Shown here piece by piece: positions 3,752 to 32,967 of a DNA stretch of 64,000 nt (its first letter is position 1; each line of letters opens with the position of its first letter). The notes under the pieces were generated by a model. That model saw only the letters and a list, made by a program, of their open reading frames with translations, ran no database searches and had not been told where the DNA came from. The translations under genes were made by a program, and so were the position numbers. The stretch is from Prevotella sp. (lineage in GTDB: Bacteria; Bacteroidota; Bacteroidia; Bacteroidales; Bacteroidaceae): NCBI GenBank assembly GCA_022771625.1, contig JALFCW010000003.1, positions 23,872 through 87,871 on the forward strand, given 5' to 3'.

Positions 3752-3757
3752 GTTTTT

Positions 3758-12702: not shown

Positions 12703-13233
12703 ATGCGAATAATTACAGGACAATACAAGGGTCGCCACTTCGATATACCACGAACTTTCAAGGCCCGACCCACAACAGACTTTGCCAAGGAGAATATCTT
12801 CAATGTGCTCAATGGCTATATCGACTTTGACGGTATAAATGCCCTCGACCTCTTCTCGGGCACAGGCAGCATATCCCTCGAACTCGTGTCGAGAGGCTGT
12901 GCACGCGTAGTGAGTGTAGAGGCCGACCGCGACCACCATGCTTTCATATCCCAATGCCTTAAGAAGCTCGGCACCGATGTATGCACCCCTATCCGTGGTG
13001 ATGTGTTCAGATTCATCAAGTCGTGCCGCCAGCAGTTTGACTTTATCTTTGCCGACCCTCCCTACGCGCTGAAGGAACTGCCACAAATACCCGACCTCAT
13101 ATTCCAGAAGGACATCCTTGCTCCCGAAGGCGTCTTCGTCTTCGAACATGGCAAAGACTACGACTTCTCATCCCATCCACATTTCGTTGAGCACCGCTCA
13201 TACGGAAGTGTTAATTTTAGTATATTCAGATGA
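12703..13233 (+). CDS. rsmD: 16S rRNA (guanine966-N2)-methyltransferase
   Basis: MRIITGQYKGRHFDIP...RPTTDFAKENIFNVL, ALDLFSGTGSISLELVSRG, DFIFADPPY. Confidence 0.95.
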   Translation: MRIITGQYKGRHFDIPRTFKARPTTDFAKENIFNVLNGYIDFDGINALDLFSGTGSISLELVSRGCARVVSVEADRDHHAFISQCLKKLGTDVCTPIRGDVFRFIKSCRQQFDFIFADPPYALKELPQIPDLIFQKDILAPEGVFVFEHGKDYDFSSHPHFVEHRSYGSVNFSIFR

Positions 13234-13269
13234 TTTAGACCATAAATCAACTTGTTGTATAGTTAAATG

Positions 13270-13291
13270 CGTTAATTAATATTAATTAACG
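13270..13291. promoter_or_regulatory. 22-bp perfect palindrome CGTTAATTAATATTAATTAACG upstream of the pilus operon
   Basis: Exact self-reverse-complement, 35 bp upstream of the putative -7 box. Confidence 0.7.
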
Positions 13292-13325
13292 AGGGAGGTA
13301 GTGGTAATTATTCAAAAAATATTTT

Positions 13326-13333
13326 TATCTTTG
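13326..13333 (+). promoter_or_regulatory. -7 box TATCTTTG for the pilus operon
   Basis: TAnnTTTG match between rsmD and the DUF3575 gene. Confidence 0.6.
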
Positions 13334-13367
13334 TCGGCAAATTAAGTGTCATATATAAACAGATGCT

Positions 13368-13958
13368 ATGAGCAAATGCAAGGCGATAGGGATAAAGGTA
13401 ATATTGTTGGTGTTGTTATTGTTGATGGGTAACACTTCAACCATAAAAGCACAAGGCTTGGCATTGAAAAGCAACATCCTTTACGATGCCACCACAACAC
13501 CCAATGCAGCTATAGAGGTAAGGCTATCCAACAAATGGACAGCCGGGATAAATGTCGCCCTTAACCCATGGTCTTTTTCCGACAACAAGAAACTCAAGCA
13601 TCTGCTTGTTGCCCCACAACTTCGCTACTGGTTGTGCGAATCATTCTCAGGACATTACTTCGGAGCAAACATAGCTTATGTGCATTATAACGTAAGCGAC
13701 ATCAAGTTTCCCTTTGGACTTTATGGTGGTGTTGACGGTGAGCGCCGACAGGGCGACCTTGCCGCCATAGGTGCATCCTACGGTTATTCATGGATACTCT
13801 CTCCCCATTGGAGTCTTGAGGCTGAGGCGGGTCTCGACCTCGGCTATACCTGGTCTGACAGGTACGACTCCCCTAAGTGCGGCACCTACCGTGGTTCCGA
13901 CAACAAGTTTCTTGTTCTGCCCAAGTTGGCGTTGAACATAGTGTATATAATAAAATAA
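13368..13958 (+). CDS. DUF3575-type beta-barrel protein, first gene of pilus operon
   Basis: Signal peptide then QGLALKSNILYDATTTPNAAIEVRLSNKWTAGINVALNPWSF. Confidence 0.85.
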   Translation: MSKCKAIGIKVILLVLLLLMGNTSTIKAQGLALKSNILYDATTTPNAAIEVRLSNKWTAGINVALNPWSFSDNKKLKHLLVAPQLRYWLCESFSGHYFGANIAYVHYNVSDIKFPFGLYGGVDGERRQGDLAAIGASYGYSWILSPHWSLEAEAGLDLGYTWSDRYDSPKCGTYRGSDNKFLVLPKLALNIVYIIK

Positions 13959-13978
13959 GGTAAGGAAAGGATATATTT

Positions 13979-15313
13979 ATGAAAAGATTTTTTCTGATTA
14001 TCACTCTCACGGTTATGGCATGTATAGATGCCATATCGCAGACGTCACCGCAGATGTCACTGCGTGTTGACGGTGTGGAGCGCGAGGACAATGGCTACCG
14101 TGTCCGCTATTCCTTCACCCTGCCTCAGCCGGCATCCGACTATTCCTATCAGGTGACTCCGCTCTTCACCTGCGGCACCGACACCATCTTTGAGGAGTCA
14201 GTCACTGTGCGCGGCAAGCTCAATGCCAAGAAGCTGCGCCGCCGCGTGGTGCTTGGCGACCGCAATGCCACTTTACCCTCGTATGTGCCTTCGGGTATCG
14301 ACTCAGTCATCACTCGCACCGCCTATCTGCCCACCGACCGCTATCCCTGGGTAGAAGGCTCCACACTTCAGCTCTGCACATCAGTAGAGGGGGAGGGTTG
14401 CTGCGAGGTAAGTCCTGCCGTAGTCCTTTGCTGCGACAGTTTCCTCTGCGAGCGTCCCTTCCATCCCGTGTTATTCTCGGTTGAGGACAACACCGGCAAG
14501 GCGGGCGAGCTTCAGCGCAGCAATCCCGTGCTTCAGCATATATCCCAGTATCGTCCTTACGACTCTTCGCGCATACTGCGCAAGGAGGAGGGAGCCTTGT
14601 ATGTCTTCTTCCCCTTGGACAAGTGGACACTGCTGCACGATTTCCGCGACAATGCCGCCACTCTCGACACCATCGTGAGCATCACTCGCCAGATTATGGC
14701 TGACTCCACGTCGAGCGTAAAGCTCATACAGATTATCGGTCTTGCCTCGCCCGAGGGAAGCGTGAAGCGCAACAACCTCTTGGGTCAGAACCGTGCTGCC
14801 ACCCTGCGCGACTATATCAAGCAGAGGGTAAAGACAGGCAATGCCATGTTTGAGCTATGCAACGGCGGTGAGGCATGGACAGAGCTGCGCGACCAGATTG
14901 CCGACAGCAATATAGAGGGACGCGACCAGCTACTCAACATCATCGACACCGAGAAGAACCCCGACGAGCGTGAGCGCAAGATGAAGCGACTCAATGGCGG
15001 AAAGACATATAAATACTTGAAGGATAACGTGCTGAGCGACCAGCGCAATTCAGGATACATACGCATATACTATGACTATGTGCCCGATTCCGCCGCCGCG
15101 GTAATCAACCGTGCCTCAGAACTATTGCGTGAGGAGCGTTATACAGAGGCACTCACGATGCTCCGCACCGTAGAGTCAGACGAGCGCGCCCAGAACGCCC
15201 TCGGCGTAGCCCTCTACATGACGGGCGACAAGCAAGAGGCTCTCTGCCGCTTCCGCCGTGCGGCAGCCTCAGGCAACGAGGATGCTCGCCGCAACATAGA
15301 GCAGTTGGAGTAG
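13979..15313 (+). CDS. DUF3868/OmpA-like periplasmic pilus accessory protein
   Basis: Signal peptide; IIGLASPEGSVKRNNLLGQNRAATLRDYIKQRV OmpA-like segment; C-terminal TPR-like ALTMLRTVESDERAQNALGVALY. Confidence 0.8.
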   Translation: MKRFFLIITLTVMACIDAISQTSPQMSLRVDGVEREDNGYRVRYSFTLPQPASDYSYQVTPLFTCGTDTIFEESVTVRGKLNAKKLRRRVVLGDRNATLPSYVPSGIDSVITRTAYLPTDRYPWVEGSTLQLCTSVEGEGCCEVSPAVVLCCDSFLCERPFHPVLFSVEDNTGKAGELQRSNPVLQHISQYRPYDSSRILRKEEGALYVFFPLDKWTLLHDFRDNAATLDTIVSITRQIMADSTSSVKLIQIIGLASPEGSVKRNNLLGQNRAATLRDYIKQRVKTGNAMFELCNGGEAWTELRDQIADSNIEGRDQLLNIIDTEKNPDERERKMKRLNGGKTYKYLKDNVLSDQRNSGYIRIYYDYVPDSAAAVINRASELLREERYTEALTMLRTVESDERAQNALGVALYMTGDKQEALCRFRRAAASGNEDARRNIEQLE

Positions 15314-15396
15314 CTATTTGGGAGACAGGTGTATCTTCCGCAAAAACACCAATATAATAGGTAAATAAATTAGTATAAATATTTTTCTTAGTAGTT

Positions 15397-17256
15397 ATGA
15401 ACAGAATTAACAATTATGTTCTCAACGGTGCGATAGCTCTGTTGTCAACCGCAGGCTTAGTAGCCTGCTCGTCCTCCGACGACGTAACCGATGCTCCCGT
15501 CAACCCCACGTATGACGGCAAGAGCGTGAAGGCCCAGTTTGCGATTAATATCGCAACGCCCTCTAATGGTAAGACAAGAATGAGTGCTGATAATACTCAG
15601 AATAATAACAATTTCCTTGGTATGAATTCGATAAAGCTTTTCCCTTTCTCCTCTGACCCTGGAAAAGATGTGAATTGGACAAGAAATATTTCTTTGACTC
15701 AAATTAATGATGGTATTACATCAGATAATTCAAGCAAGATATATTCAAATGTAGAGATACCTGTAGGAACAAATAACTTCTTGTTCTATGGTTTTGGCCC
15801 GATGGGTGAAACACAAGAGGATAAATTCAAGAAAGGTATGTTGACGACAAACTTTCCGAGTGAAGTTGCAACCGCTCCAAGTTCTATCTCTGCTTCATTG
15901 GTTCCAATTCTTGGAACAGAAAATGAAATGTCAACAATTCAGGGATATTATACTACATATCTGAACGGCATCAAGGATGTCAACGGCTGGAGCACAACTG
16001 ACGATATTTCACTTCGGAATGCTTACGACCTGTTCATTACCATTGGTTCAACTGGAGTAAGATGTGGTTCTGCTAATGCTATATTGAAGACAGTTGAGTT
16101 GCTTTATAATTTGGCTATAGATCGCAAGACTGCGTCAACATCTACAGATGTACAGACTCTTGCAGAAGCAATAAAGACAGCAATTACAACTACATCGGGT
16201 GATATTCAAGTGACTGCCACTGCAAGAACTAATGATGCTACTCACTATGACCTTTCTTATAGCGGAACTGATGATAAATATTCATTTCCAACCAACCTTG
16301 GTCTTCCAGAAGGTGCTGCCCAGTTGGAGTATGGAGAATCAGGATTCTCATATAAGAACACCCCAACCATAGGAGCTTCCGGTTCCATACTAAATGTTTA
16401 TGGTCTTACATATCCGTCTTCTATTGCTTATACTGCAAATACAAGAGCTAAGGCTTCAACTGAAATATTTGAAGCAACAGAGTGGCCAAAAACTGTTAGC
16501 GATTGGGATGATACATCAAAATGGCCTTCTACTTCAAGCTGGACAAATGAAGTAGTAGCTTCTACAAGGTCTGTAGCTCTTGTTAATAACATAAACTATT
16601 CTGTTGCTTCTTTGAAGACTACAGTGAAGTGTAATGAGGCTTCTCTTGAAGATAATCGTGCAAATGTCATAAATGATGGGAACCCTGCGAATCAAACTAT
16701 TTCTGTTCCTTCTGAAGGATTTAAGGTAACAGGTGTTCTTGTTGGTGGTCAGCCAAACAAAGTTGATTGGCAGTTTTTGGACAATGGCTCTGAAAGAAGT
16801 GCTGTGATATATGACAAGGATCTTACTAATATCGTTGCAGAGTCAGGTACGGAATCAGCTGCTAACTATACTCTCGTTTTCGATAACTGGAAGAATAACG
16901 AAACACAAGATGATGTGCTTATGGCAATTGAGTTGGAAAACAATTCCGAATCTGATTTCTATGGTGTTGACGGTATTATCTTAAAGGGACAAAAGTTCTA
17001 TTTGGTGGCAAAGCTGGTAGTTAGTTCAGCAGGTACAAGTTCAATTACTTGGCCTGATGATGATTACCGCTATCCGAAGAAGGATATTACTCGTGTATTT
17101 ATGCAGGACTATACAACTACTGCAAAGCTCAATATCAATAGTCTCAAGAATGCATATTCCACAATCCCTGATTTGAGAAGTGTAGAGCTCCAGCTCGGTC
17201 TTTCAGTTGACCTTGAGTGGAAGACAGGTTTGACATACGATGTTAATATTGATTAA
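15397..17256 (+). CDS. Major fimbrillin (FimA/Mfa1-like lipoprotein)
   Basis: Lipobox STAGLVACSSSDD; position before a FimB/Mfa2 gene; C-terminal LGLSVDLEWKTGLTYDVNID typical of fimbrillins. Confidence 0.8.
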   Translation: MNRINNYVLNGAIALLSTAGLVACSSSDDVTDAPVNPTYDGKSVKAQFAINIATPSNGKTRMSADNTQNNNNFLGMNSIKLFPFSSDPGKDVNWTRNISLTQINDGITSDNSSKIYSNVEIPVGTNNFLFYGFGPMGETQEDKFKKGMLTTNFPSEVATAPSSISASLVPILGTENEMSTIQGYYTTYLNGIKDVNGWSTTDDISLRNAYDLFITIGSTGVRCGSANAILKTVELLYNLAIDRKTASTSTDVQTLAEAIKTAITTTSGDIQVTATARTNDATHYDLSYSGTDDKYSFPTNLGLPEGAAQLEYGESGFSYKNTPTIGASGSILNVYGLTYPSSIAYTANTRAKASTEIFEATEWPKTVSDWDDTSKWPSTSSWTNEVVASTRSVALVNNINYSVASLKTTVKCNEASLEDNRANVINDGNPANQTISVPSEGFKVTGVLVGGQPNKVDWQFLDNGSERSAVIYDKDLTNIVAESGTESAANYTLVFDNWKNNETQDDVLMAIELENNSESDFYGVDGIILKGQKFYLVAKLVVSSAGTSSITWPDDDYRYPKKDITRVFMQDYTTTAKLNINSLKNAYSTIPDLRSVELQLGLSVDLEWKTGLTYDVNID

Positions 17257-17273
17257 TACAATAAATACTCTGT

Positions 17274-17314
17274 TATAATGGCGTCACGACATCTATTGTC
17301 GTGATGCCATTATA
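17274..17314 (+). promoter_or_regulatory. Strong intra-operon hairpin after the major pilin gene
   Basis: tataatggcgtcacgaca-tctat-tgtcgtgatgccattata, 18-bp stem with one wobble; no T-tract follows. Confidence 0.85.
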
Positions 17315-17356
17315 ACGGTATTAACAACAACAATATCATATATATATAATAAGGTA

Positions 17357-18382
17357 ATGAGAAGCAAGTATTGTCTGCTGATGCTGCCCGCTGCGGCGGT
17401 GGTGCTCTCGTCGTGCTCCATCATCGACGAGGACAACTCCGACTGCGGATTGGACAACAAAATCGTATATCGCCTGAAACTCAGAACAAACATCCAAACC
17501 GAACTCGAAACACAGCTCGGCACGGAGGAGGAACGCCCCGTGGCACAAGCACTCAGCTCCTCACTCAGCGGTATATTCACTGACTGGGCACACGACATCT
17601 CTCTCTCATTCTATGACACCGACGACAAACTGTATAAAACGGAAAAGCATACGATGGATGCGTCGCAAGCCGAATACGTGGTGTATCTGCCAGAACGTGA
17701 CTACCGTAATCTCGTTGTGGCAAATATAGCCGACGCTGAAAATATTCGCCCCCTCGATGACACCCATCCCGATGACATGAAGTTGCAGTATGACAACCTC
17801 ACCGACACCCTCAACAGCCACACCACCGGTCTCTTCACCGCAAGACAGGTGATAGAGGTGTGCGGCTGCACCGAGACATATTACGTTGACCTGTATATGG
17901 CTAACAGCTGCGCCGCCCTTGTGGTGGATACCACTGGTGTGGATATACGCGGCATGAAGGTGTTCACCCAGGACTTCGCCACCTCCTTCGCCGTGGCTGA
18001 CAGCACCTACGCCTTTACAGCCAATCCCGTGGTGCGCTCAACTGAGATACCTCTCCCCGGTCAGCACCGCACCTGCCATTATGCCGTGAGCTTCCCGTCG
18101 AGGAACAACACCGTAGCCACCGCTTCCGCCGTCAGTCAAGCCCCGGCAAGGGCAGACTCCCAGGCAGAGACCCTCTTCCGCATAAAGGCATACATAACCC
18201 TCCCCGACGGCTCTGTCACTGAGAACATCATCTCTGTGGAGCAACCCCTCCTCGCCGGTTATCTCAAGATAATAAAGATGAAGATGAAGCAGGACGGCTC
18301 GCTCACTCCTGAGAGTCACGACGTGGGAGTAAGCGTGACGCTGGACTGGAAGCAAGGGGGGACTTATGAGCCGGAGATATAA
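17357..18382 (+). CDS. FimB/Mfa2-family fimbrial anchor subunit
   Basis: Lipobox VVLSSCSIIDED; LSGIFTDWAHDISLSFYDTDDKL and VTLDWKQGGTYEPEI typical of Mfa2. Confidence 0.85.
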   Translation: MRSKYCLLMLPAAAVVLSSCSIIDEDNSDCGLDNKIVYRLKLRTNIQTELETQLGTEEERPVAQALSSSLSGIFTDWAHDISLSFYDTDDKLYKTEKHTMDASQAEYVVYLPERDYRNLVVANIADAENIRPLDDTHPDDMKLQYDNLTDTLNSHTTGLFTARQVIEVCGCTETYYVDLYMANSCAALVVDTTGVDIRGMKVFTQDFATSFAVADSTYAFTANPVVRSTEIPLPGQHRTCHYAVSFPSRNNTVATASAVSQAPARADSQAETLFRIKAYITLPDGSVTENIISVEQPLLAGYLKIIKMKMKQDGSLTPESHDVGVSVTLDWKQGGTYEPEI

Positions 18383-18389
18383 TTATTAA

Positions 18390-18537
18390 ATAAGGAGTTA
18401 TTAAATAAGGAGTTATAATGGGGAGTTAAGATGGGGAGTTAAAATGGGCCATTACTCTCAGCGCTTAGACATTTGGCTCTTCATTACTTCCCCTCATAAC
18501 TTCCCCTCATAACTCCTCCTCATAACTCCTCCATAAA
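18390..18537. repeat. Inverted array of GGAGTTAA/GGGGAGTTAA repeats (family B, copy 2)
   Basis: Left aaataaggagttataatggggagttaagatggggagttaaaatgggcc; right cttcccctcataacttcccctcataactcctcctcataactcc; core AGCGCTtagACATTTGGCT shared with copy 1. Confidence 0.85.
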
Positions 18538-18546
18538 AAAATAACA

Positions 18547-20157
18547 ATGAAAATTGATTTGAAAAACATATTATTGGATGTAATGATGTTTTTGGCGGCT
18601 GCCGTCGTCACCTCTTGTTCGGATGACGACAGTCTTGCCTCCCGCGGTCTGGAGACCGTGGAGATGCCTATCTCCATCTCTATCCCAGCCGAAGGATTCG
18701 TCAATCCCACTGATGTGGGCATAGGCAATGATGAGCCTGCTTCGACGTTAGCCGTCACTCGCGCCCTTGGAGACCCAGGCACATACGAGCAATTCCATCT
18801 CCCCCGATATATCTACCTCTTCCTCTGCAACGAGAGCACCAACGGCACTGAGTCCGTCATATATCAGAAGATAGAAATCCCCGACAACGAACTCACCTCA
18901 TCATGGGAAAAGACCGTCTCGGGCACCGACAGCATATACACCTATAAAGGCACCGTCAGCATCAATCTCCCGCTCAACAGGAGCAAGGGTAAAATTTATG
19001 CCGCCGCCTCATATATCCCGCTGCATACCACAAATGCCTCTTCTTCTATGTCGGAAGACAAGGACAGCAATCATCTCTCCTTTAATTGTAAAAGGCCAAG
19101 CAAATTCGGCGACTCACAATATCCGCGAGAGTATATCAACGAATCAAAGACATATACTGATGGCACTTACGGCACGGAGGATGCCGTGAAGAACATCATC
19201 TTCTCCAATATCACCCTGCGTAACTATATGCAGGATGTATATTCCACACCATATAACAAGACGGATAACAAAGGTGATTATTACGGCACAATAACAGACT
19301 ATGCCTCCAATGTGCCGAACATCAACATAGTGCTCTATCACGTGGCGACAAAAGTGGACGTGCAATGGAGCATTGACGAGGATTTTCAGGGAACGGCAGA
19401 TTGGGCTGTGCCTAAGGTGAAGAGTAAAAGCAATCCCGGCGACCCTTTGGAGTCATATCCTCCCTCCACCTCAGGCAGCACCTATCTCCCTGCCCATAAG
19501 TATTGGACAAAATACGAATGTGATAATATGGTGAACAGTAAGGGCGAGGAGAACAAGCTCTTCTTCTCGCTTGTAGAGCTGCGCGACCTGCCCAAATACG
19601 GTTGTTTCCTCTTCCGTCCGTTGGAGACGGGAAACAGCGATTATCTCAGTTCATACAAAATCCGTCTTATAGGGTCGGAGACCACTCCGCAATATACCTT
19701 GAAAGATGAGAACGGAAATGTTACCAAATCCGGCTCAGTTCCCGCTCATGACAATACGTCTTCAGGTCCTACGGGTGCATACGTGGCATCAGGAGGCTAC
19801 AACACCTATTATTATCATCTTGACGAGAAGGACTACGGTATGAAATACCATGGCAGGGTAGTGGCATACGTCACGCCCAAGGTATATAACATTACGACAG
19901 AAGGCACCGAACCGGATGCAGACAACTTCATCAAGATGCGCCTCCTGTGCAACAACTACACCACATCCACCTCGGACGGTTCGAGCATATACAACGAGGA
20001 CCATGCCACCAAGGGATATAACACATACGTCAAGATATCAAAGCCTGATGAGGGCGACAAGATATTCACCCCATGGATAAGGGTGTTAATAAATGTTAAT
20101 ACATCGCAAAGGGCGCAGAACGTGATGAAAGTCACAGAAGAGCCGGAAATGAATTGA
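18547..20157 (+). CDS. Fimbrial accessory/tip lipoprotein
   Basis: Lipobox VVTSCSDDDS; fimbrial operon context between the Mfa2 homologue and the giant adhesin. Confidence 0.65.
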   Translation: MKIDLKNILLDVMMFLAAAVVTSCSDDDSLASRGLETVEMPISISIPAEGFVNPTDVGIGNDEPASTLAVTRALGDPGTYEQFHLPRYIYLFLCNESTNGTESVIYQKIEIPDNELTSSWEKTVSGTDSIYTYKGTVSINLPLNRSKGKIYAAASYIPLHTTNASSSMSEDKDSNHLSFNCKRPSKFGDSQYPREYINESKTYTDGTYGTEDAVKNIIFSNITLRNYMQDVYSTPYNKTDNKGDYYGTITDYASNVPNINIVLYHVATKVDVQWSIDEDFQGTADWAVPKVKSKSNPGDPLESYPPSTSGSTYLPAHKYWTKYECDNMVNSKGEENKLFFSLVELRDLPKYGCFLFRPLETGNSDYLSSYKIRLIGSETTPQYTLKDENGNVTKSGSVPAHDNTSSGPTGAYVASGGYNTYYYHLDEKDYGMKYHGRVVAYVTPKVYNITTEGTEPDADNFIKMRLLCNNYTTSTSDGSSIYNEDHATKGYNTYVKISKPDEGDKIFTPWIRVLINVNTSQRAQNVMKVTEEPEMN

Positions 20158-20163
20158 TTTGAA

Positions 20164-23100: not shown

Positions 23101-26100
23101 GATTTCGGATTTGACTTCACGACAGTAACAACGAGAAATTATGGCGGTCTTTCTGATATAGGCGCCATTGAGAACACATCATTGCCGGAGTTTGGCAAGG
23201 TGATTTATGTCACGGAGAAGGGTGCCGGAAAGAAAGACGGTTCTTCTTGGAGCAATGCCATTGCAGGTAATACTGTGTATGACTTAGAAGGAAAGAACAT
23301 TCTTTCTGTATCAACAACTTCTGATGACTATATATCAGGAGTTTATAAAGAAACATCCAATGGTAACCTTGACTTTTGGGATGCAAGTTCGGGAAATACA
23401 ATAACGTCTGGTAAGGTAATAATTAAAAATAACAGATATGAACGTTATATCAGTGGACTTCAGTATGCTGTAGAAATCGCTTCGGCAAATAGTATTAGTG
23501 AAGTGTGGGTTGCAGGTGGAATATATACAGACTATAAAGGATATGTAATTAGGGATAAAGTAAATGTTTATGGTGGATTCCCCAATTATGGGAATCCAGG
23601 AAATTCAGAGCGTCATCCTTTATTGTCAAGTTCAGTTCCAGTAAGTATTTCTAATAGTGGATTGGCAGATCAAATTGACAAGTATGAAACTATTCTTCAA
23701 ATATCCAGTGAGTCACCTGTAACTTGGGATAATTCTGCTGGAAAATATACACTAAAGGATTGGGTGATAAGTAAGGTTAATTCGAAGACTGTTGAGAGAC
23801 GTACTGTGTTGAGACAGCCAGATGTTTGTATGCCAACTTGGTCACCAAGAAACCATACTTCCACCATCCCTGAAACAAAGAATGGTAATTATGCGGCAAA
23901 TACATATAGGTATAAGGGAGCTAAGAACGGTAAAGAAGATACAGAAAATTATATAGAATATAATGATGTGATATGGGATGGTTTTACCATACAAAATGGT
24001 TACATCACAAATTATTTTGCCAATAGAGATGGAGGAGCCGGAGTTCGATTGTTCCGAGGAGTGACCCTTTCTAATTGTATTGTGAAGAATAATGTAAATG
24101 TATCATGTAGAAATAGAGCAGGAGGAATTTATTGCGATGGAGAAAATACCACAGTAAATAACTGTTTTATTTTTAATAATGTAGCAGAACTTCGCGGTAA
24201 CTACAACTCAGATAATGCAGGTAATCCAAATGATGGTGGATTTGGGGGCGGATCATATATGATTGTTGGTACTGGATTTAACCTCCTTATATGTAGAAAC
24301 TACTCTTCAAAAAATGGAGGTGGTCTTTTCTTGGAATGTTCCACCTTTTATAATAATACTGTTGCTTACAATATTAGCGGAGATGGCGTTGGTGGAGTTT
24401 GCCATTGGACAAATCAACAATATTTGGATGCCAAGATAGAGTTATTTAATTGTCTGTTTTATAAAAATAGTGGACGTGCAGTGCATTCTTCTTCTCCTAA
24501 TTTTTTTACATCTCCTACAAATTGTTATGTGCATACAGTAAAAGACTTGGATGGAAGTGTAAGTAAAAAATTCACAACGACAGGTGAAAATAAATCGTAT
24601 GTTGGCACAACCTTGGCGAATCCTTTCTATGATGGAGATAATGCGATGATTAGTAATAATTATAGCTTGAAACCAAGTAATGAAACTTTAACTAATGATT
24701 GTATAAATACGGGAAATAATACTCCTAACGGAGCTACTTTGCCTTCTACGGATATTGACTTCACCGACCGTATCCAGGACTGTACAGTGGATATCGGTGC
24801 ATACGAGTTCAATGGTGCGTATAGCATCACGCCAGATGTAACGACAAGCGCAGACCAGGCGGTGTTCTATGTCACGCAGAACGGACGCGGCACTGGCTCG
24901 GCGGCTAATCCTGAGAATGCTGCTTGCTGGACCAAGCTGCAAAAAGTGTTGGATGCTGCGGGAAGATATTTGGAGGTGCATAAAGGCGATGAAGTCAAGA
25001 AACAAGTGATTGTGAAATTGGCGGGAGATGTACCAACGGAAAGTGTGGACGAGAGCGGAAATAAAACCTACAAGTATTCGGGCTTCGTCTATCGCCCCCG
25101 CCGCTCAAACAAGGTGACGGCTTCGGGACAGGAGGTGAACACACGCGACTATACCATCATCGTGCCCCACGGTGTGGAGGTATGGGGCGGATATAGCGAC
25201 GCCTTCACAAGTTCTGACAACAACGGATTCTATACCAAGGTCTCTGAGGGCAACTATACTGACAACCGTGATGTACTGAAAAACCGCACAACTCTCAGCG
25301 GTGTGTATCAGGCTGACGACCAGGATGTAAACGTGTATAATGTGGTGACGTTCACCAATGATACATATACCGAAGAGGGAACACTCAAGACACCAGATGC
25401 TCTTGAAAACATATCAGCCCGCGCCGTGCTCGACGGACTATTCATAGAAGACGGTAATGCCGACGGCGAGAAGCAATCTTCCGGAAAGAGAACAGACACT
25501 CGTGTGGGTGGCGCTGCCATCGTCACGGGATATGCACATATACGCAACTGCGTGGTGCAGAACAACAAGGCTACGGATGCCGGAGGTGGACTGTATCTCG
25601 AAGAGGGCGCATTGGTGAGCGGAAGTATCGTGCAATATAACGAGGTAACCAAGGGTGACGGAGGAGGACTATACGTGGAAGAACCTGCATCGGCATACTC
25701 TGAGAATGTCAACGCCGCAACCAACCCTGCCCGCATCTTCACGTCCGACATCATATATAACACGGCAAGCGGAGCGGGAGGAGGTATCTCGTTCACCACC
25801 GACGGCACGCCGAATGTCAGGGCAAACAGTGTGCTGTTCTGGCAGAACACGGGTAGCGAGCAGTCGAACGTCAACGGCATGACAACACCGACGGATGCAG
25901 GGAACACCAACCTTACCATCAAAGACTATCCCATATCCTTCTGCGCCACTGAGACAACACGTGAGCCGGGTATCAACAACATTTCCGTGAACACCGATGT
26001 GGACAAGGGTGTGCGCTTCGCCACAGAAACGTACAACCATGACTATACCGACAGCAAGGGAACGCCTGTCAAGAGGAAGCACAATGAATATGAGTTCTAT

Positions 26101-29100
26101 AAGATAAAGAAATACAGTCTGCTGGCACGTGGAGGCATGGAGTACAAGGACTATAAAGCCCTTGTCGAGAGTGATGCCCTTACCGCCGAAGACATGGCGA
26201 ATGTGACCCGCACATTTCAGGGCAACGACTTCATTGACATCGGAGCGAGAGCCATCGGCGAACTGGTGCTGCCTGTGGCAAATGAAGATAACCTCATGAC
26301 CCGAATCTTCGTGGTGAAGAACGAGGAAGACGTAGCCACAACATCCGTAGAGGTGATGCAGAACCAGACTACGAGTAAATACTATCAGCAGGAAGGCTCG
26401 TCGTTCGCCTATCCAATGCGCTATCTCGACGATGCACTTGAATACGTGAGGGATGCACGTAAGCTGAAGAAACTTAATGATGAACAAACCGACTCTGTGT
26501 ATGCATATAATGACACGAAGTTTGAGATTATCCTCAGCGGCGGAACATATTATCCTATGCGAAACATCAAGGGAGAATATGTGAACAGCCGCGGACGTAC
26601 ATATCTCGTGCCTGAAGGCGTGACCATCGTTGGAGGTGTCGAGACAAAACAGAGCGACGCAAGCAGTGGTGAGTCTTATTATGGAAATATCGCTTCTGTT
26701 GGAAAATTGCCAGAAAGTAATGTTGCATCGACAACATTTACTTATGGCACTTCAAATGTCGTTATCTCCCATCCCGAGATTAAGGACATCATAAAGAACC
26801 GCAAGCTCTCCGACATCAACCACAACAACATTGCCGAGCCGTGGGAGATGGCAGTGCAGACCATTCTGTCAGGACAGGTGGTGAACGGTAATTCCAACGA
26901 AAACGTATATCACGTCATAGCTTGTATTGCCGACGAGAAGCATGTGGGAGGACTGCCCGACGCTACGATTAAATATCACGACAGCAAAAGTGAGAAATAT
27001 GACTCAAATGCCGGCAATGGCACTGTTCCATACGAGCGTGGTGTGCCTGTAATCATTGATGGTGTGGAGATAGAGGACGGCACGGCTATGGGATATGACG
27101 CAAAAGCCGTGAACAGTGTATATACATATTATAAAGGTGGAGCTATTTGCGTCGAAGGCAACTGGGTTACTAATACTACTACCAATTCAGGAGACTATTT
27201 CAAAACATATACTGGCATAGACCGTCCTGTTGGCCACCGCAGCATCCCCCTTGAGGTGCGCAACTGCAACTTCCGCAATAATGGCGGATGCCTTGGAGGT
27301 GCCATCTTCACCGACAGCGAACTGAAGGTTTTTGCCTGCAACTTTGTGCAAAACTATGCCAAGGTGGAGACTGACCAAATAGGTAATAATAGTGTGACAT
27401 ACGCCGGACGTGGCGGCGCCATCAATGCCAGCTATAACACCGTAATAGTTAACTCGCTATTTGCAAACAATGAGGCTGACACGTCGCCATCGCCCGGCGG
27501 AGCTGAACTTAGGGGAGTGGGCGGAGCCGTGCTGCTCGGAGAGCATGCCTCGCTACACATGATAAACTGTGACGTGGTTCGCAATCTTGCCTATGCCTAT
27601 CCCGCTATCTATTGCTATGAGCCAAATAAAGGAGGCAAGTACTCTGATGGCGAACAAACATTGAAAACAAACAATCCACATAAGATAGTCAATACCATAT
27701 TTTGGGGCAATGAGGTGACTGGTGGCAGCGGGATGGACAAGGTTGCCAACTTTGACAAGGACTCACATGACAATACCAAGAACGCCGAGATGCTTTGGTT
27801 CTGCGCCTACGAGGAGGGTAAGGGCAACGCCCCTGTAAACTCCAAAAACAATATTGACTACCGACTCCAGGATTATGAGGGATTCGGAACTTTCATACCT
27901 TCGCTGTGGACAGGAAACTATAACAAGTTGGGCAGCGACAACAAGTCAATAGAAAATGTAGATGGTACTAATCCCGACAAGGATCCCAATACAGGTCTTA
28001 ACCCCGTTACCTGCAATATCATCATAGACTCTGACAACGATGCCATCAACGGACCGAACTTCATCAACCCGTCGTCAAAGGCAGGAAAGGCAGGATATTA
28101 TACCTCTGCTGACTGGATGATAGGTCGTATCAACAACCTCGTGGATAATGGATGGACATTCCTCCAGCAAGACCTGAAGGATGGTGACCCTAAGTTTGTC
28201 TATATTGACGATGAGGGAAATATCGTTAGTCAGAGCACCTCAGGGGCAGAGGCGGCGGGTGCAGGTATCTACCGCCGCACTGCTTACGACTATGACAATG
28301 TCAACACGGGTGAAACTGCTGTGCCAATCGGTAATGACAAGTATATGACATACGCCGATGGTACGGGCAAGGCGATGCTGCGTATTTCCACTGACCCTAA
28401 CCCTACTCACCACCAGACTTACATTGATCTCGGCGTGTATGAATACCAGCACGTGAAACTCGATCCGTCGGTGGAGAACGGACATGTAGATGTGCTGTGG
28501 GTGACGCAACAGGAGAGAACCAGTGCCTCGGTGGCTGACGGTAAGACTTGGGAGACGGCTACGAGTGACGTGCAGCGAGCTATAGAGACCTTGCTCGCAT
28601 CGCGCAACGGACACGACAAGGAAATCCGTATGCTCGAAGGACGATACCAACCCGTATATACCATCAACGGCAATCTCGGTTTCACTATCACTACCGATGT
28701 GACAACCGGCATAGTGCCGCCAGACTGGAAAGGCTCTACCACTAAAGGCGTGAACTCGCTCACCATACGCGGTGGCTACAGTAAGGATGTGCAGGGACTG
28801 GAGAACATCCACGACTATCCAGTATATCTTTTTGCTTCAGAACGCTCAGGTGTGGATGGCAATCTGCTCGGACATGTGTTCGTGATAGGTGATGTAAGGC
28901 AGAGGGAATCGACAGGTTATTCTACAGATAAGACGGTTACTACCGATGTGAAAGACTATGTCGTTCCTGTATATCTCGACGGATTGACCTTCTGTAATAT
29001 TAAGTCTATGCCGCATACAGATATTGCCGGAGGTAGTTGCTCAGGCGGTGCCGCTGTGTTCTATAAAGACCAGAAGAAGAATCAGGACGGTGAAAATGGT

Positions 29101-32100
29101 TCTCTTGTAGGTAAGTCATACGTCACGGAGAATGGAACAACAGTTGATTCATATACACAATATCCAATCAGCGGCACAGAATCTAAATATCCTCTCTATA
29201 AGCTGACGATGAACCGCTGCGACTTCCGTGTCAATGGAGCTACCTCAGAAGTGCCGGCAGTAACGATAGGCGCGGGTGGAGGTGAGGCTCTGATATATAA
29301 CTCCGTATTCCATAGCAATATGGGTAGTCCGCTCATCGCCACAGATACCAAGGTGGTAAACTGCACTTTTGCCCTCAATGGCGGTAGTATTCAATTCAGG
29401 AACACTGCACAGGGCAAGTCGGAGATGCACAACTCTGTGCTTTGGTGCAATAATGGATATAAGACTACACCTGAATGCACAGGACTATCGTCTGGAAGTA
29501 TGACATATAATGCCATATCGTCTCTCAGTTCAGACGATGATGACAATCATAATGTAACCTTGTCATCCGACAACAACGACGTGCTCCAAGGCCCGAACTT
29601 CTTTGCCCCGGCGGCATTAACAGCTGCTGACAGTTGGGCTAAGGCATCGCGTGACTTCCGTGTCAATCCGAGTGCAAAGATTATCGGTAAGGCATCGCCT
29701 AAGATATATGTGGATCTCGTGAGGGACCTCACGGGAAGGTATCCTTATACAACAACTGAGACTAAAAAAGATGACGACAACGACCCGTATTATGTGGACT
29801 TGGTGAAGAAGGATTTCGACCTTGCCAATAACACCCGCTATTACGGCTCTGCCGGTATGGAGCGAGGTGCATACGAATGTATCGCCACTCTGAGCCGTGT
29901 GTTGTATGTCAATCCCGAACGTGTGTCGTCAAGTGCCGACTATAACGGATTCTCATGGGAGAAGGCATATACCAAGGGCAATCTGCAGAAGGCCATCGAT
30001 GCCGCAGCCGTTTATTCTAACGTACATAATGAGAAATCGTATGTCTTTGTCAAGGGTATGGCCACATCCACCGGTGAGACCATCACCATGCGCGACAACG
30101 TAACGCTTTATGGAAGTCTGCCGTCAACCACAGCCATCAATACGGGAGTTGAGGAGACGACAGATAAGAATGGAAACAAGTATTACGATAACGACAAGAT
30201 AGAAAAATATATCAAGGCTATGGACGCCGACCGCGACGGTATGGCTTCTTCTTATTCCAAGCATACTATCGTGAATGGTGTAAAATCGGTGGAGCCTTTA
30301 ACCTACTGTCTTTTTGACGGACTTGAGATAGGCAGCGGAGATAACAACTCTGCCAATGTCGCTACATCGCCCGTGGTGGATATACAGCAAGGCAATGTGG
30401 CCCTGCGCAACTCCATCATTGCCAACAATGAGATTACTGCCACCGGTCAACCCCTCGTCAACCTCCAGTCGGGACTGCTCTACAACACGCTTATACGTGA
30501 CAACAAGGTGGCTGAAACTTCAGATGCTCTCGTCTCGCTTGGAGCTAACGGCTATATGCTCAACTGCACCGTAGTAGGAGGTGGCTTGACTCAAGGCTCC
30601 ACCGTCTCACACGCCATTAATAATATAATGTATAAGGAGACAGACGCAGCCATGCCTTTCGCTCCGTATTTCCGTCATTCCACCACAGCTTATCATGGAG
30701 AGATACCTGCGGAGGATGTTAGCAACCGCAACCTCTGGTATCAGTTGCATGAGAGAACTACTAATATTGAGGGAGGTGAGAATGGTGATGCTAACGACGA
30801 AAGTAAATACGATGGCAAGAGCCATGTGTCAGACAAACTCAAGCAGTATGTTGACTATACCTCAGACCGCGACCTTCTCGGCAATCCTCGCTTCCTTGGC
30901 TTGAAGGTGGATAACGGATGCTTCGAGACATGGTCAACGGGTGCAATGACTAAGTCAGGCTCTGTAGCCCCCAATGTCCTCTATGCCGATGGCTCCGCTG
31001 ATAACTATAACGGTCAGTATTATCCGCACGAGGGTTCGGTGGTTTATCTGCAGCCATCAGGTAAATTAGTATGTAAGAATATAACCGACGGAGCGGGTAA
31101 TGTGACATCGCATTACTTTACCGATTCCAATCCTCTGCGCCCGGGCTACGTTCTGGCATTGGAGGGCGGCTCGCTCTACGGACAGGGCAATACTATCGAC
31201 CTCCGATATGTGGCAGCCGAGCGAACCATCAGACAGCAAACCATCGGACAGCAAACCATCGCACAATACTCCCTCGTCTCACTGCCATTTGACATGAACT
31301 ATGGGACGGACGATAAAGGCAAAATGCCTTTCGTTACTACCACCACCTACGATTCCAACAATAATGTTACAGAGACAGCCGTTGCCCCATTCTCTCGATA
31401 TGAGTATGACGGTGAGGCACGAAGCCACTATAAGTACAGCTTTGCAGAGAGCAATTCTACATGCTGGAAACCGCTCACCACAAACATCCGCACTGCCAAC
31501 GAGGGTATGCTCATCGACCGTGGCTCTACAGCTACAGAGCAAAAACTTCGCTTCACGGCATACGGAGCGACTGCCGCTGACTATCCTTATCGTGAGTCTG
31601 CCGATAAGGATTATGTCACCCTCACTCAATATGACGACCGCACATCAATCGAAGGCGGCTCTGACTTCACCTCTGTATATAATATGGGATGGAATCTCAA
31701 GGGCATGCCTTATCTCATCAGTAGTTATCCGATATTCCAACAGATGGATGATGACTCGTATGTCATGAATGTGCCGCACGTCATATATACAATGAACCCC
31801 AATGGAAGCTATGTGACGAAGCAATCGTGGGCATCTTCTGCTGATAACACACTCTCGCCCGGAGAAGCCTTCTTCACACAGACTGCAACCATCAACACAG
31901 AGGAGCATCTCCACTTTGCCCAGCTCTTCTATACCTCTTCTGCTTCTACTAACACGGCCAGCACCCGTTCCGCCCTCAACATCTCCTTGTCTTCCGCAGA
32001 TGCAACAGGTGAGGATGCCTATAGGAGCTTGGGCGTCTCGCCCGCGGCTGGTGCTGTCTGTCTGCAGCCAGTGGATAACACCTCTGATGATAACACCTCT

Positions 32101-32715
32101 GATGATAACACCTCTATGGTATATACCATCAATCGCGACGGAGCGAAGTTTATGTCGATGAATCCCGCTATCCCCGACATAGCCGTATGCGGAGCAGGAG
32201 GCGAGATGATGTCGTTGGCTGGAGCCGCACCTGTAGAGACAGAGATTTCAGTGGCAACGAGGGTCGGCACGACAGGTCGTTACACCTTCTCGCTCGATAA
32301 GAGTGCAGGCGTTTCACCCGCCACCACCGAGGTATGGTTAAAGGACTATCAAACGGGTATTGTAACGAATCTTATGGAAGATGATTATACTGCTGAGATT
32401 ACTGTGGGCGAGAATCCTGCATCCCCGGTGCTTACCACCGGTAGATTCTCATTGACAATAGGCGGTATGCGTCCTGACATCGGTGGATGGGATGAAAGCG
32501 GTGCCGGATGGACCATATCCATTAACCGTTGTCACGTAACAGTCTCTGATCTCTCCACAGATTCCGATGTCCTCTTCTACACCACCGATGGCATACTCCG
32601 CCATCGTGCCACTCCATTCCTTGGCAAATGCGAGGCAGAGCTTTCTCCTGGCGTATATGTAGTCAGGGCAGAGGGAAATAGCAAGGTTATAGGGCTTGTA
32701 AGGAGAGATAAATAG
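20164..32715 (+). CDS. Giant (4183 aa) secreted parallel beta-helix adhesin with about 7 repeated modules and a T9SS-like C-terminal domain
   Basis: Signal peptide IYTIIAAMLTLCATTMAQ; repeated module starts (RYVTTSGNYANDGTSWAQA, IYVTEKGAGKKDGSSWSNA, FYVTQNGRGTGS, LWVTQQERTSASVADGKTWETA, LYVNPERVSSSADYNGFSWEKA) and module ends (DIGAIE, DIGAYE, DLGVYE, ERGAYE); C-term SPGVYVVRAEGNSKVIGLVRRDK. Confidence 0.85.
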   Translation: MQETMLSIRRIYTIIAAMLTLCATTMAQTTFSGPIRYVTTSGNYANDGTSWAQAKNNLQDAIESLHDYMTRNGITEGRVYVAKGTYRPTTSTPGGDGVLYTSFLIYDGITVYGGFNATNPEATPEDRIVLAADGKTERTISQAIGLKWRMKNTTTLSGNHSSSTEDPMKWNSSKNEYDESFTGNSYHVVWFATNTSTHSSGLDARNRAVGLANKAAIDGFTIQEGNASNRTVPEETDGRHAYHNSYGGGVYMVANSEVRNCIIRQNASALRGGGVYMDGGGLMEQCYVAQNQSDGVGVTDGYGGGVACDDGGIVRNCIIENNAGRCGGGLSIAFSSIPATDKARYASYASGCVVANNTSQAEAGGVFMRNGGLLNHLTITCNNCVGAGVVYNNRRYGRSGGLYVDGGGMVANSVIWGNMVAANNDVQYATYRESSTTPKVKFDFVALSKYNYVDWSGTVKRTNGVYSLNEENRNTTTKGYYPDFTTPPSDKGVSQAPEVPLSWIPRSSSYLRHQGMQLNDYPTSANYPNGSDYETEGKDVVDAFLVSDMTGKQFAPRCVLGAFVANSPTGEHASVVSVEDNITSIITVFIDPSTDAVVSPSEYDNTPIGNSWDNPFNNINDALDYVKTLTISDTSPVQMLVKEGTSTTAGNTYLPYIRSSFIDLPSHVRLYGGFASSLKGTDISKRNPKAYPTRITANITGSDYAENGCHIITVRHGATDVIVDGFQLYFANAQKSSVLPTLALEGGAGIAIINSEADQPMKDIKIRNCVVANCTASQGSALFLRNTPGAVMQVDVENCIFHNNAVTREQAATVEATGNNTTLTLNHCLIRGNVGYGVMATDNANIKVKNTALHANIGYNSYSGSSNPKITDLIATESNPDPNVVTFYTTSNGKISVSDDATSANNMMDLGVSDAVATAVATSKFSYHSSYTSTYPKFVNPTSNIGVNKDGDVTMYGGDPNWMPMNMNPMVNAANESNPDFGFDFTTVTTRNYGGLSDIGAIENTSLPEFGKVIYVTEKGAGKKDGSSWSNAIAGNTVYDLEGKNILSVSTTSDDYISGVYKETSNGNLDFWDASSGNTITSGKVIIKNNRYERYISGLQYAVEIASANSISEVWVAGGIYTDYKGYVIRDKVNVYGGFPNYGNPGNSERHPLLSSSVPVSISNSGLADQIDKYETILQISSESPVTWDNSAGKYTLKDWVISKVNSKTVERRTVLRQPDVCMPTWSPRNHTSTIPETKNGNYAANTYRYKGAKNGKEDTENYIEYNDVIWDGFTIQNGYITNYFANRDGGAGVRLFRGVTLSNCIVKNNVNVSCRNRAGGIYCDGENTTVNNCFIFNNVAELRGNYNSDNAGNPNDGGFGGGSYMIVGTGFNLLICRNYSSKNGGGLFLECSTFYNNTVAYNISGDGVGGVCHWTNQQYLDAKIELFNCLFYKNSGRAVHSSSPNFFTSPTNCYVHTVKDLDGSVSKKFTTTGENKSYVGTTLANPFYDGDNAMISNNYSLKPSNETLTNDCINTGNNTPNGATLPSTDIDFTDRIQDCTVDIGAYEFNGAYSITPDVTTSADQAVFYVTQNGRGTGSAANPENAACWTKLQKVLDAAGRYLEVHKGDEVKKQVIVKLAGDVPTESVDESGNKTYKYSGFVYRPRRSNKVTASGQEVNTRDYTIIVPHGVEVWGGYSDAFTSSDNNGFYTKVSEGNYTDNRDVLKNRTTLSGVYQADDQDVNVYNVVTFTNDTYTEEGTLKTPDALENISARAVLDGLFIEDGNADGEKQSSGKRTDTRVGGAAIVTGYAHIRNCVVQNNKATDAGGGLYLEEGALVSGSIVQYNEVTKGDGGGLYVEEPASAYSENVNAATNPARIFTSDIIYNTASGAGGGISFTTDGTPNVRANSVLFWQNTGSEQSNVNGMTTPTDAGNTNLTIKDYPISFCATETTREPGINNISVNTDVDKGVRFATETYNHDYTDSKGTPVKRKHNEYEFYKIKKYSLLARGGMEYKDYKALVESDALTAEDMANVTRTFQGNDFIDIGARAIGELVLPVANEDNLMTRIFVVKNEEDVATTSVEVMQNQTTSKYYQQEGSSFAYPMRYLDDALEYVRDARKLKKLNDEQTDSVYAYNDTKFEIILSGGTYYPMRNIKGEYVNSRGRTYLVPEGVTIVGGVETKQSDASSGESYYGNIASVGKLPESNVASTTFTYGTSNVVISHPEIKDIIKNRKLSDINHNNIAEPWEMAVQTILSGQVVNGNSNENVYHVIACIADEKHVGGLPDATIKYHDSKSEKYDSNAGNGTVPYERGVPVIIDGVEIEDGTAMGYDAKAVNSVYTYYKGGAICVEGNWVTNTTTNSGDYFKTYTGIDRPVGHRSIPLEVRNCNFRNNGGCLGGAIFTDSELKVFACNFVQNYAKVETDQIGNNSVTYAGRGGAINASYNTVIVNSLFANNEADTSPSPGGAELRGVGGAVLLGEHASLHMINCDVVRNLAYAYPAIYCYEPNKGGKYSDGEQTLKTNNPHKIVNTIFWGNEVTGGSGMDKVANFDKDSHDNTKNAEMLWFCAYEEGKGNAPVNSKNNIDYRLQDYEGFGTFIPSLWTGNYNKLGSDNKSIENVDGTNPDKDPNTGLNPVTCNIIIDSDNDAINGPNFINPSSKAGKAGYYTSADWMIGRINNLVDNGWTFLQQDLKDGDPKFVYIDDEGNIVSQSTSGAEAAGAGIYRRTAYDYDNVNTGETAVPIGNDKYMTYADGTGKAMLRISTDPNPTHHQTYIDLGVYEYQHVKLDPSVENGHVDVLWVTQQERTSASVADGKTWETATSDVQRAIETLLASRNGHDKEIRMLEGRYQPVYTINGNLGFTITTDVTTGIVPPDWKGSTTKGVNSLTIRGGYSKDVQGLENIHDYPVYLFASERSGVDGNLLGHVFVIGDVRQRESTGYSTDKTVTTDVKDYVVPVYLDGLTFCNIKSMPHTDIAGGSCSGGAAVFYKDQKKNQDGENGSLVGKSYVTENGTTVDSYTQYPISGTESKYPLYKLTMNRCDFRVNGATSEVPAVTIGAGGGEALIYNSVFHSNMGSPLIATDTKVVNCTFALNGGSIQFRNTAQGKSEMHNSVLWCNNGYKTTPECTGLSSGSMTYNAISSLSSDDDDNHNVTLSSDNNDVLQGPNFFAPAALTAADSWAKASRDFRVNPSAKIIGKASPKIYVDLVRDLTGRYPYTTTETKKDDDNDPYYVDLVKKDFDLANNTRYYGSAGMERGAYECIATLSRVLYVNPERVSSSADYNGFSWEKAYTKGNLQKAIDAAAVYSNVHNEKSYVFVKGMATSTGETITMRDNVTLYGSLPSTTAINTGVEETTDKNGNKYYDNDKIEKYIKAMDADRDGMASSYSKHTIVNGVKSVEPLTYCLFDGLEIGSGDNNSANVATSPVVDIQQGNVALRNSIIANNEITATGQPLVNLQSGLLYNTLIRDNKVAETSDALVSLGANGYMLNCTVVGGGLTQGSTVSHAINNIMYKETDAAMPFAPYFRHSTTAYHGEIPAEDVSNRNLWYQLHERTTNIEGGENGDANDESKYDGKSHVSDKLKQYVDYTSDRDLLGNPRFLGLKVDNGCFETWSTGAMTKSGSVAPNVLYADGSADNYNGQYYPHEGSVVYLQPSGKLVCKNITDGAGNVTSHYFTDSNPLRPGYVLALEGGSLYGQGNTIDLRYVAAERTIRQQTIGQQTIAQYSLVSLPFDMNYGTDDKGKMPFVTTTTYDSNNNVTETAVAPFSRYEYDGEARSHYKYSFAESNSTCWKPLTTNIRTANEGMLIDRGSTATEQKLRFTAYGATAADYPYRESADKDYVTLTQYDDRTSIEGGSDFTSVYNMGWNLKGMPYLISSYPIFQQMDDDSYVMNVPHVIYTMNPNGSYVTKQSWASSADNTLSPGEAFFTQTATINTEEHLHFAQLFYTSSASTNTASTRSALNISLSSADATGEDAYRSLGVSPAAGAVCLQPVDNTSDDNTSDDNTSMVYTINRDGAKFMSMNPAIPDIAVCGAGGEMMSLAGAAPVETEISVATRVGTTGRYTFSLDKSAGVSPATTEVWLKDYQTGIVTNLMEDDYTAEITVGENPASPVLTTGRFSLTIGGMRPDIGGWDESGAGWTISINRCHVTVSDLSTDSDVLFYTTDGILRHRATPFLGKCEAELSPGVYVVRAEGNSKVIGLVRRDK

Positions 32716-32842
32716 GGAATTTTGTAATAAAAGACGAAAATATTTGGGTATAATATAAAAAAGTTGGGAAAAAATTTGGAGATTACAGAATTTCGTCGTA
32801 CCTTTGCACTCGCAATCAGCAATAACACGGTTGCAAGGATAT

Positions 32843-32913
32843 TGGGATATGGTGTAATGGTAACACTGCAGATTCTGGTCCTGCCTTTCCTGGTTCGAGT
32901 CCGGGTATCCCAA
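32843..32913 (+). tRNA. tRNA-Gln (anticodon CTG), CCA not encoded
   Basis: TGGGATA acceptor pairing with TATCCCA; anticodon loop TTCTGGT; GGTTCGAGTCC T-arm. Confidence 0.92.
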
Positions 32914-32924
32914 CAAAGAAGAGC

Positions 32925-32951
32925 GCAATCTTTCGAGGTTGCGCTTTTTTG
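32925..32951 (+). terminator. Rho-independent terminator after tRNA-Gln
   Basis: agcgcaatctttcgaggttgcgctttttt hairpin plus T-tract. Confidence 0.8.
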
Positions 32952-32967
32952 TGCTTAATAAAGTAAT

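What the first reader, a model, noticed from the sequence alone, without database searches (positions are those of the whole stretch)
13368..32715. Type V pilus operon ending in a 4183-aa multi-module beta-helix protein
Six co-directional genes (DUF3575, DUF3868/OmpA-like, fimbrillin, FimB/Mfa2, tip lipoprotein, giant gene) look like one assembly locus. The terminal 12.5-kb ORF replaces the usual modest tip adhesin (such as Mfa5-type proteins) with a signal-peptide-bearing protein of about seven beta-helix modules. Each module begins like YVT..G..DG.SW..A...LQ.AI and ends D(I/L)GAYE-like, and the protein has a T9SS-like tail. A pilus-tip or co-secreted adhesin this large may be an undescribed surface system.
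Basis: partly seen in the sequence, partly recalled or inferred. Interest (0 to 1): 0.8.

Follow-up and report, generated by a model that had tools for sequence, protein, structure and literature searches.

The report
Pilus operon with giant T9SS-type adhesin
A Prevotella pilus gene cluster ends in one huge (4,183 amino acid) repeat protein that is always found next to the pilus-tip gene in dozens of gut and rumen relatives, so it is probably a giant grappling arm carried or co-displayed by the pilus, a variant that does not seem to have been described.

Summary
Six co-directional genes (13368-32715) form one locus, and a 6-nt gap separates the tip gene from an intact 4183-aa ORF. That ORF has a Sec signal peptide, seven homologous beta-helix modules, a beta-rich C-terminal region and a T9SS-like tail. 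The label 'DUF3868' is wrong. Linkage is conserved. Of 79 loci carrying module 1 in named genomes (Prevotella, Hallella, Segatella, Paludibacteraceae and Bacteroidaceae MAGs), 73 have readable upstream sequence, and all 73 have the tip-lipoprotein gene within 2.1 kb (66 within 300 nt). Intact giant ORFs are 3.5-5.2 kaa. AlphaFold models module 1 as a right-handed parallel beta-helix (pLDDT 87). Closest analogue: P. gingivalis Mfa5, the last, largest, T9SS-exported tip protein of the mfa cluster; the giant shares position, export logic and variability with Mfa5, but no detectable homology and no vWA domain. Physical attachment to the pilus is inferred, not shown. New variant of a known kind.

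The parts
13326..13333 (+). Bacteroidales-type -7 element (TAnnTTTG: TATCTTTG), the only one on this strand in 13200-20300; candidate promoter of the whole operon
   Evidence: a perfect -33 TTTG is not present at the usual spacing
13368..13958 (+). DUF3575 outer-membrane-type protein, 196 aa
   Evidence: PF12099 E=2.9e-58
13979..15313 (+). periplasmic/outer-membrane protein with TPR-like C-terminus (OmpA-like by eye), 444 aa; not DUF3868
   Evidence: weak TPR hits; PF12984 absent
15397..17256 (+). fimbrillin-like lipoprotein (presumed shaft), 619 aa, lipobox Cys24 invariant in 12 relatives
   Evidence: no Pfam hit
17272..17316 (+). 20-bp hairpin between fimbrillin and Mfa2, candidate for setting subunit ratio
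   Evidence: dG -36.5, z -7.9
17357..18382 (+). FimB/Mfa2-type anchor lipoprotein, 341 aa
   Evidence: 4 of 11 relatives hit PF08842, best 4.6e-5
18393..18530 (+). long imperfect hairpin between Mfa2 and tip genes
   Evidence: dG -58.9, z -9.2
18547..20157 (+). tip/adaptor lipoprotein, 536 aa; invariant GDPG preceded by Arg (Lys in one) in a predicted beta1-beta2 loop
   Evidence: top PDB fold hits are Bacteroides type V pilins 4gpv and 3pay and a putative adhesin 5cag, low-confidence model
20164..32715 (+). giant protein, 4183 aa
20164..20244 (+). Sec signal peptide, no lipobox (residues 1-27)
   Evidence: sequence
20257..21918 (+). module M1 (res 32-585), most conserved module, beta-helix
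21961..23178 (+). module M2 (res 600-1005)
23191..24819 (+). module M3 (res 1010-1552), exchanged cassette; the break in DNA identity runs 23092-24764
24856..26271 (+). module M4 (res 1565-2036)
26287..28461 (+). module M5 (res 2042-2766)
28471..29889 (+). module M6 (res 2770-3242)
29890..30939 (+). module M7 (res 3243-3592)
30940..32463 (+). beta-rich C-terminal region conserved in the giant family, no Pfam family (res 3593-4100)
32464..32712 (+). T9SS type A-like C-terminal domain (res 4101-4183)
   Evidence: the window's own tail alone is below threshold
32698..32718 (.). right breakpoint of synteny between the exchanged operon and the tRNA-Gln/ksgA flank; the left one lies in 13229-13412

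Best explanation
This is a type V-like pilus operon whose terminal gene encodes a giant, Mfa5-like (by position and export, not by homology) surface adhesin. Proposed working: (1) one promoter at about 13326 drives six genes, and strong hairpins after fimbrillin and after Mfa2 tune subunit ratios; (2) fimbrillin, Mfa2 and the tip protein are lipoproteins that assemble by protease-triggered strand exchange, the tip protein being clipped at the Arg in its beta1-beta2 loop just before GDPG; (3) the giant is not a pilin: it crosses the inner membrane by Sec and the outer membrane by T9SS through its C-terminal domain; (4) its N-terminal module M1 docks on the tip lipoprotein, as Mfa5 binds the adaptor Mfa3, and M2-M7 project outward as a stiff chain of right-handed beta-helices that bind a glycan- or protein-rich surface; (5) species exchange the operon and swap shaft, tip and single modules, changing ligand or antigen. 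Shown here: gene order, conserved linkage, beta-helix fold of M1, module homology, cassette swaps, Sov/SprA in the genome. Supported: T9SS tail, Mfa2 identity, pilin-like tip. Inferred: docking, tip location, adhesion.
For: Linkage: 17 of 17 same-genus giants with upstream sequence have pilus genes directly upstream; 73 of 73 M1 loci in named genomes have the tip gene within 2.1 kb, median gap about 25 nt. Fold: AlphaFold M1 pLDDT 87, pTM 0.89, PDB matches AlgE4, Pel9A, BT_1002 and rhombotarget A. T9SS: tails of 10 of 16 giants hit TIGR04183 (best 8.6e-8) and 4 hit PF18962; the tail profile's top PDB hits include the T9SS tails of RemA (E=0.0022), endonuclease I and gingipains; Sov/SprA is present in the genome (2612 bits) and in 17 of 17 giant genomes. 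Coevolution: M1-tip distances correlate 0.85 against 0.56 for M1-Mfa2. Analogy: Mfa5 is the only T9SS-exported fimbrial protein and is much the largest (PMC7835359); Mfa3 binds Mfa5 (PMC5954841). A second, unrelated giant class with T9SS-like tails occupies the same position in 16 of 20 sister loci.
Against: The window's own tail does not reach TIGR04183 even at E=1. SprA is nearly universal in the genus (18 of 19 controls), so co-occurrence says little. The tip model has low confidence (pLDDT 60.6). Sequence profiles of fimbrillin, tip and Mfa2 are only weakly alike. M1-tip correlation is not corrected for species phylogeny, and fimbrillin-M1 is nearly as high (0.84). No experiment shows the giant on a pilus.
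Confidence: 0.6

Rival explanations
1. The giant is a T9SS-exported cell-surface fibre encoded and regulated with the pilus but anchored on its own in the outer membrane; the two adhesive devices only share an operon.
For: T9SS cargo with a type A tail are normally cleaved and anchored to lipopolysaccharide (general knowledge). The tail is the only attachment signal visible, and about 1,000-1,800-aa proteins sharing the same C-terminal half occur widely in the genus (90 of 398 genomes with any match; most weaker matches cover only model positions ~439-680).
Against: The tip gene is the most constant neighbour even where fimbrillin or Mfa2 are not recognised, and M1 is the most conserved module and tracks the tip, which a mere shared promoter does not predict.
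Confidence: 0.27
2. The modules are carbohydrate-active beta-helix enzymes (lyase/epimerase-like) and the locus is a substrate-degrading, pilus-displayed system.
For: Foldseek neighbours of M1 are polysaccharide lyases, epimerases and glycosidases; many carriers are rumen or gut polysaccharide degraders.
Against: These matches are to the fold in general (TM-scores at most 0.60, 7-13% identity); no catalytic family hit in Pfam or NCBIfam.
Confidence: 0.08
3. Chance neighbourhood: a big beta-helix gene happened to land beside a pilus operon.
For: Beta-helix proteins of the choice-of-anchor Q kind are common in Bacteroidota (general knowledge); the operon is mobile between species.
Against: 73 of 73 loci linked across several genera and families at about 40% protein identity.
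Confidence: 0.02

Closest known systems
Mfa5 of the Porphyromonas gingivalis mfa1 fimbria (type V)
   Same: Last gene of the cluster, far larger than the pilins, signal peptide plus T9SS C-terminal domain, next to adaptor/tip lipoprotein genes, variable N-terminal architecture between strains (PMC7835359, PMC8313007, PMC5954841)
   Different: 1,228 aa (up to about 2,200 in genotype E, 6,615 bp) against 4,183; Mfa5 has a vWA domain and Ig-like domains, here beta-helix modules; no detectable sequence homology; mfa5 is reported as transcribed independently, here one promoter-like element serves all six genes
Choice-of-anchor Q / right-handed beta-helix surface proteins (NF041518, PF13229)
   Same: Beta-helix modules ending in DIGAYE-like motifs
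   Different: Seven modules in one chain, strictly tied to a pilus locus, specific M1 N-terminus
SprB and RemA, T9SS adhesins of gliding Flavobacterium
   Same: Very large T9SS-exported surface adhesins; the tail profile matches the RemA tail best
   Different: No gliding genes examined; coupled to a pilus operon instead
Class II giants of sister type V loci (found here, e.g. L157, L163, L175)
   Same: Terminal about 4,000-aa gene of a locus with the same Mfa2 clade, signal peptide, T9SS-like tail
   Different: GGNVYGGGNAG/VFGGAR repeats, no BLAST similarity to class I, usually followed by a second long repeat ORF

Membership tests
Type V pilus locus | FimB/Mfa2-type anchor gene | tested here: met
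   Family level: 4 of 11 relatives hit PF08842, best 4.6e-5; the window copy itself is below cut-off
Type V pilus locus | Pilins are lipoproteins with an N-terminal lipobox | tested here: met
   Cys24 invariant in fimbrillin (12 sequences), Cys24 in tip (17), Cys20 in Mfa2 (11)
Type V pilus locus | Two-domain transthyretin-like pilin fold | tested here: inconclusive
   Tip model pLDDT 60.6; best PDB hits include 4gpv (BegFim1A shaft) and 3pay (BovFim2B anchor) (identities from PMC5789003)
Type V pilus locus | Arg/Lys protease site in the beta1-beta2 loop | tested here: met
   Arg (16) or Lys (1) shortly before GDPG in 17 of 17 tips, in a predicted loop; cleavage itself not testable
Type V pilus locus | Protease-mediated strand-exchange polymerisation | not testable with these tools
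   -
Mfa5 family | Terminal position in the pilus cluster | tested here: met
Mfa5 family | T9SS C-terminal domain | tested here: met
   Met at family level (10 of 16 tails hit TIGR04183); the window's own tail is below threshold
Mfa5 family | vWA domain / sequence homology to Mfa5 | tested here: not met
   No vWA in Pfam; no Mfa5 among PDB sequence hits of the M1 or C-terminal profiles
Mfa5 family | Incorporation into the pilus tip complex | not testable with these tools
   -
T9SS type A cargo | TIGR04183/PF18962-type tail | tested here: met
   10 of 16 and 4 of 16 relatives; window alone inconclusive
T9SS type A cargo | Genome encodes the translocon | tested here: met
   Sov/SprA 2612 bits
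Right-handed beta-helix / choice-of-anchor Q | Pfam/NCBIfam hit and beta-helix fold | tested here: met
   No match in the genome

The most novel reading that the evidence does not exclude
A whole branch of type V pili in Prevotella and its relatives serves as a display scaffold for about 0.4-MDa T9SS-exported repeat fibres. At least two unrelated giant classes have converged on the same gene position and the same size (about 4,000 aa), and the fibre is diversified by swapping entire beta-helix modules together with shaft and tip genes.
Probability: 0.45. Interest if true: 0.82.

Novelty: new variant of a known kind. Interest (0 to 1): 0.68.

Why it matters
If right, it shows that Mfa5, known from one oral species, is one example of a general design in which a lipoprotein pilus carries a protein exported by a different machine (T9SS). 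It gives gut and rumen Prevotella a surface fibre of a size class not yet connected to pili, with a modular, exchangeable architecture that could decide what each species binds. It also makes a question testable in culturable non-model commensals (Segatella baroniae B14, Prevotella lacticifex): how does a T9SS product get onto a type V pilus?

Tried and rejected
DUF3868 for the second gene: no PF12984 match in the genome. Recent tandem duplication of modules: no BLASTP self-hits. A single-family T9SS call from the window alone: not reached, so relatives were used. PDB sequence searches with fimbrillin, tip, Mfa2, M1 and C-terminal profiles found no relatives. Profile-profile comparison of the three pilins was weak. 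SprA co-occurrence as evidence is uninformative because nearly all the genus has it. 'Giant replaces a common adhesin at one fixed locus': the Mfa2 subfamily was absent from 19 giant-free control genomes; it recurs in relatives with a different giant. Some third-position figures for ksgA/rsmD come from wrongly picked ORFs and are not used; the blastn rows are. Literature searches for a beta-helix giant at type V loci found nothing in the open-licence library; subscription papers were not searchable.
Full report
WHAT IS THERE. The window lies in a Prevotella-like genome (G000, 3.16 Mb, 150 contigs; its nearest named relatives are Prevotella sp. P5-92, P5-108 and P2-180). Six genes run in one direction from 13368 to 32715 between rsmD (12703-13233) and tRNA-Gln/ksgA (32843-33762). 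The last ORF is 4183 aa, intact, and starts 6 nt after the tip gene. It begins with a signal peptide without a lipobox and is followed 60 nt downstream by a separate promoter-like site (32775) for the tRNA. Only one TAnnTTTG element lies on the + strand in 13200-20300, at 13326.

GENE IDENTITIES. DUF3575 is firm. The 444-aa protein is not DUF3868. Mfa2 is supported through relatives. Fimbrillin and tip are lipoproteins with invariant lipobox cysteines. All 17 tips compared share GDPG preceded by Arg or Lys, in a low-confidence loop between the first two strands of the model, which is where type V pilins are cut (PMC4789730). The tip model is poor (pLDDT 60.6), but its best PDB neighbours include known type V pilins 4gpv and 3pay.

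THE GIANT. Seven modules, residues 32-585, 600-1005, 1010-1552, 1565-2036, 2042-2766, 2770-3242 and 3243-3592, are homologous by profile-profile comparison, while the C-terminal 590 residues are not related to them. Module 1 models as a right-handed parallel beta-helix with pLDDT 87 and pTM 0.89, with PDB neighbours such as AlgE4, Pel9A and BT_1002. The tail of the window copy is too diverged to be called alone. Across 16 giants, 10 tails hit TIGR04183, and the tail profile's PDB hits include four T9SS tails among the first eight. Sov/SprA is on the same contig.

CONSERVATION. The C-terminal region found full-length matches in about 23 of 398 same-genus species, with open frames of 3.8-5.0 kaa where contigs are intact; a separate set of shorter proteins shares only part of it. 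All 17 with upstream sequence sit behind pilus genes. In named genomes module 1 occurs in at least 79 loci in Prevotella, Hallella, Segatella, Paludibacteraceae and Bacteroidaceae; of 73 with at least 1.5 kb upstream, all have the tip gene within 2.1 kb, 56 an Mfa2, 55 a fimbrillin and 52 DUF3575/OmpA-like genes. The tip and other gene models were built from same-genus loci, so hits in the same genomes are not independent, but those in Paludibacteraceae are. In the family, 21 of 399 genomes and 8 of 30 genera carry module 1.

MOSAIC EVOLUTION. The operon sits at other places in those genomes: similarity stops at 13220-13472 on the left and 32697-32720 on the right. Inside this recently shared block fimbrillin is only 49-54% identical in protein, tip is 52% in one and 87% in the other, and within the giant, DNA similarity disappears exactly over 23092-24764, module M3. 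The window's M3 is closest (43% over the module) to giants of a different lineage (G328, G089, G058, G133), not to its otherwise nearest relatives. This is whole-module cassette exchange.

A SECOND GIANT CLASS. The same Mfa2 clade occurs in 49 of 399 family genomes. Of 20 loci chosen because module 1 is not adjacent, 16 end in another giant of about 4,000 aa (two cut by the fetched stretch) with GGNVYGGGNAG/VFGGAR repeats, a T9SS-like tail and no similarity to class I, usually followed by another long repeat ORF. The gene position, the size and the export tail are therefore conserved while the fibre itself is not.

MECHANISM. P. [quoted passage not shown] By analogy M1 docks on the tip lipoprotein. 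M1 is the most conserved module and its distances follow the tip (0.85) more than Mfa2 (0.56), though fimbrillin is nearly as close to M1 (0.84) and species phylogeny was not removed. A chain of seven beta-helices would reach tens of nanometres (inference). Ligand and physical attachment are unknown.

VERDICT. Real, conserved and, as far as the open literature searched shows, undescribed. It is a type V-like pilus locus with a giant, Mfa5-like but non-homologous terminal protein: a new variant of a known kind.

Noticed in passing
L156-L158, L160-L169, L171-L173, L174, L175: Sister type V loci with the same Mfa2 clade end in an unrelated giant class (3.4-4.3 kaa, GGNVYGGGNAG repeats, T9SS-like tail), followed by a second long repeat ORF (at least 2,785 and 2,426 aa in L174 and L175).
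   Followed up: partly
window 17272-17316 and 18393-18530: Very strong hairpins in the gaps after fimbrillin and after Mfa2; many relatives with a gap of 45 nt or more also have strong hairpins there. Possible ratio control or cassette boundary.
   Followed up: partly
window 15625-17092: Central part of fimbrillin is replaced relative to P5-92 and P2-180 although flanking DNA is 94-96% identical.
   Followed up: partly
window 13229-13412 and 32698-32718: Sharp synteny breakpoints of the operon between rsmD and tRNA-Gln/ksgA; in G087 a 14-kb block with a peptidase, SusC/SusD-like and lipoprotein genes lies between giant and ksgA instead.
   Followed up: partly
L065 1936-3657, L069 2495-4216: A 573-aa gene of unknown kind sits between tip and giant in two pig-gut-type Prevotella MAGs.
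   Followed up: no
G058, G053, G133, G328, G089, G227 giants: A second lineage of class I giants carries an extra N-terminal beta-helix module in front of the M1-like module.
   Followed up: no
G010: A near-complete same-genus genome (99%, 3 contigs) without a detectable Sov/SprA, the only one of 36 tested.
   Followed up: no
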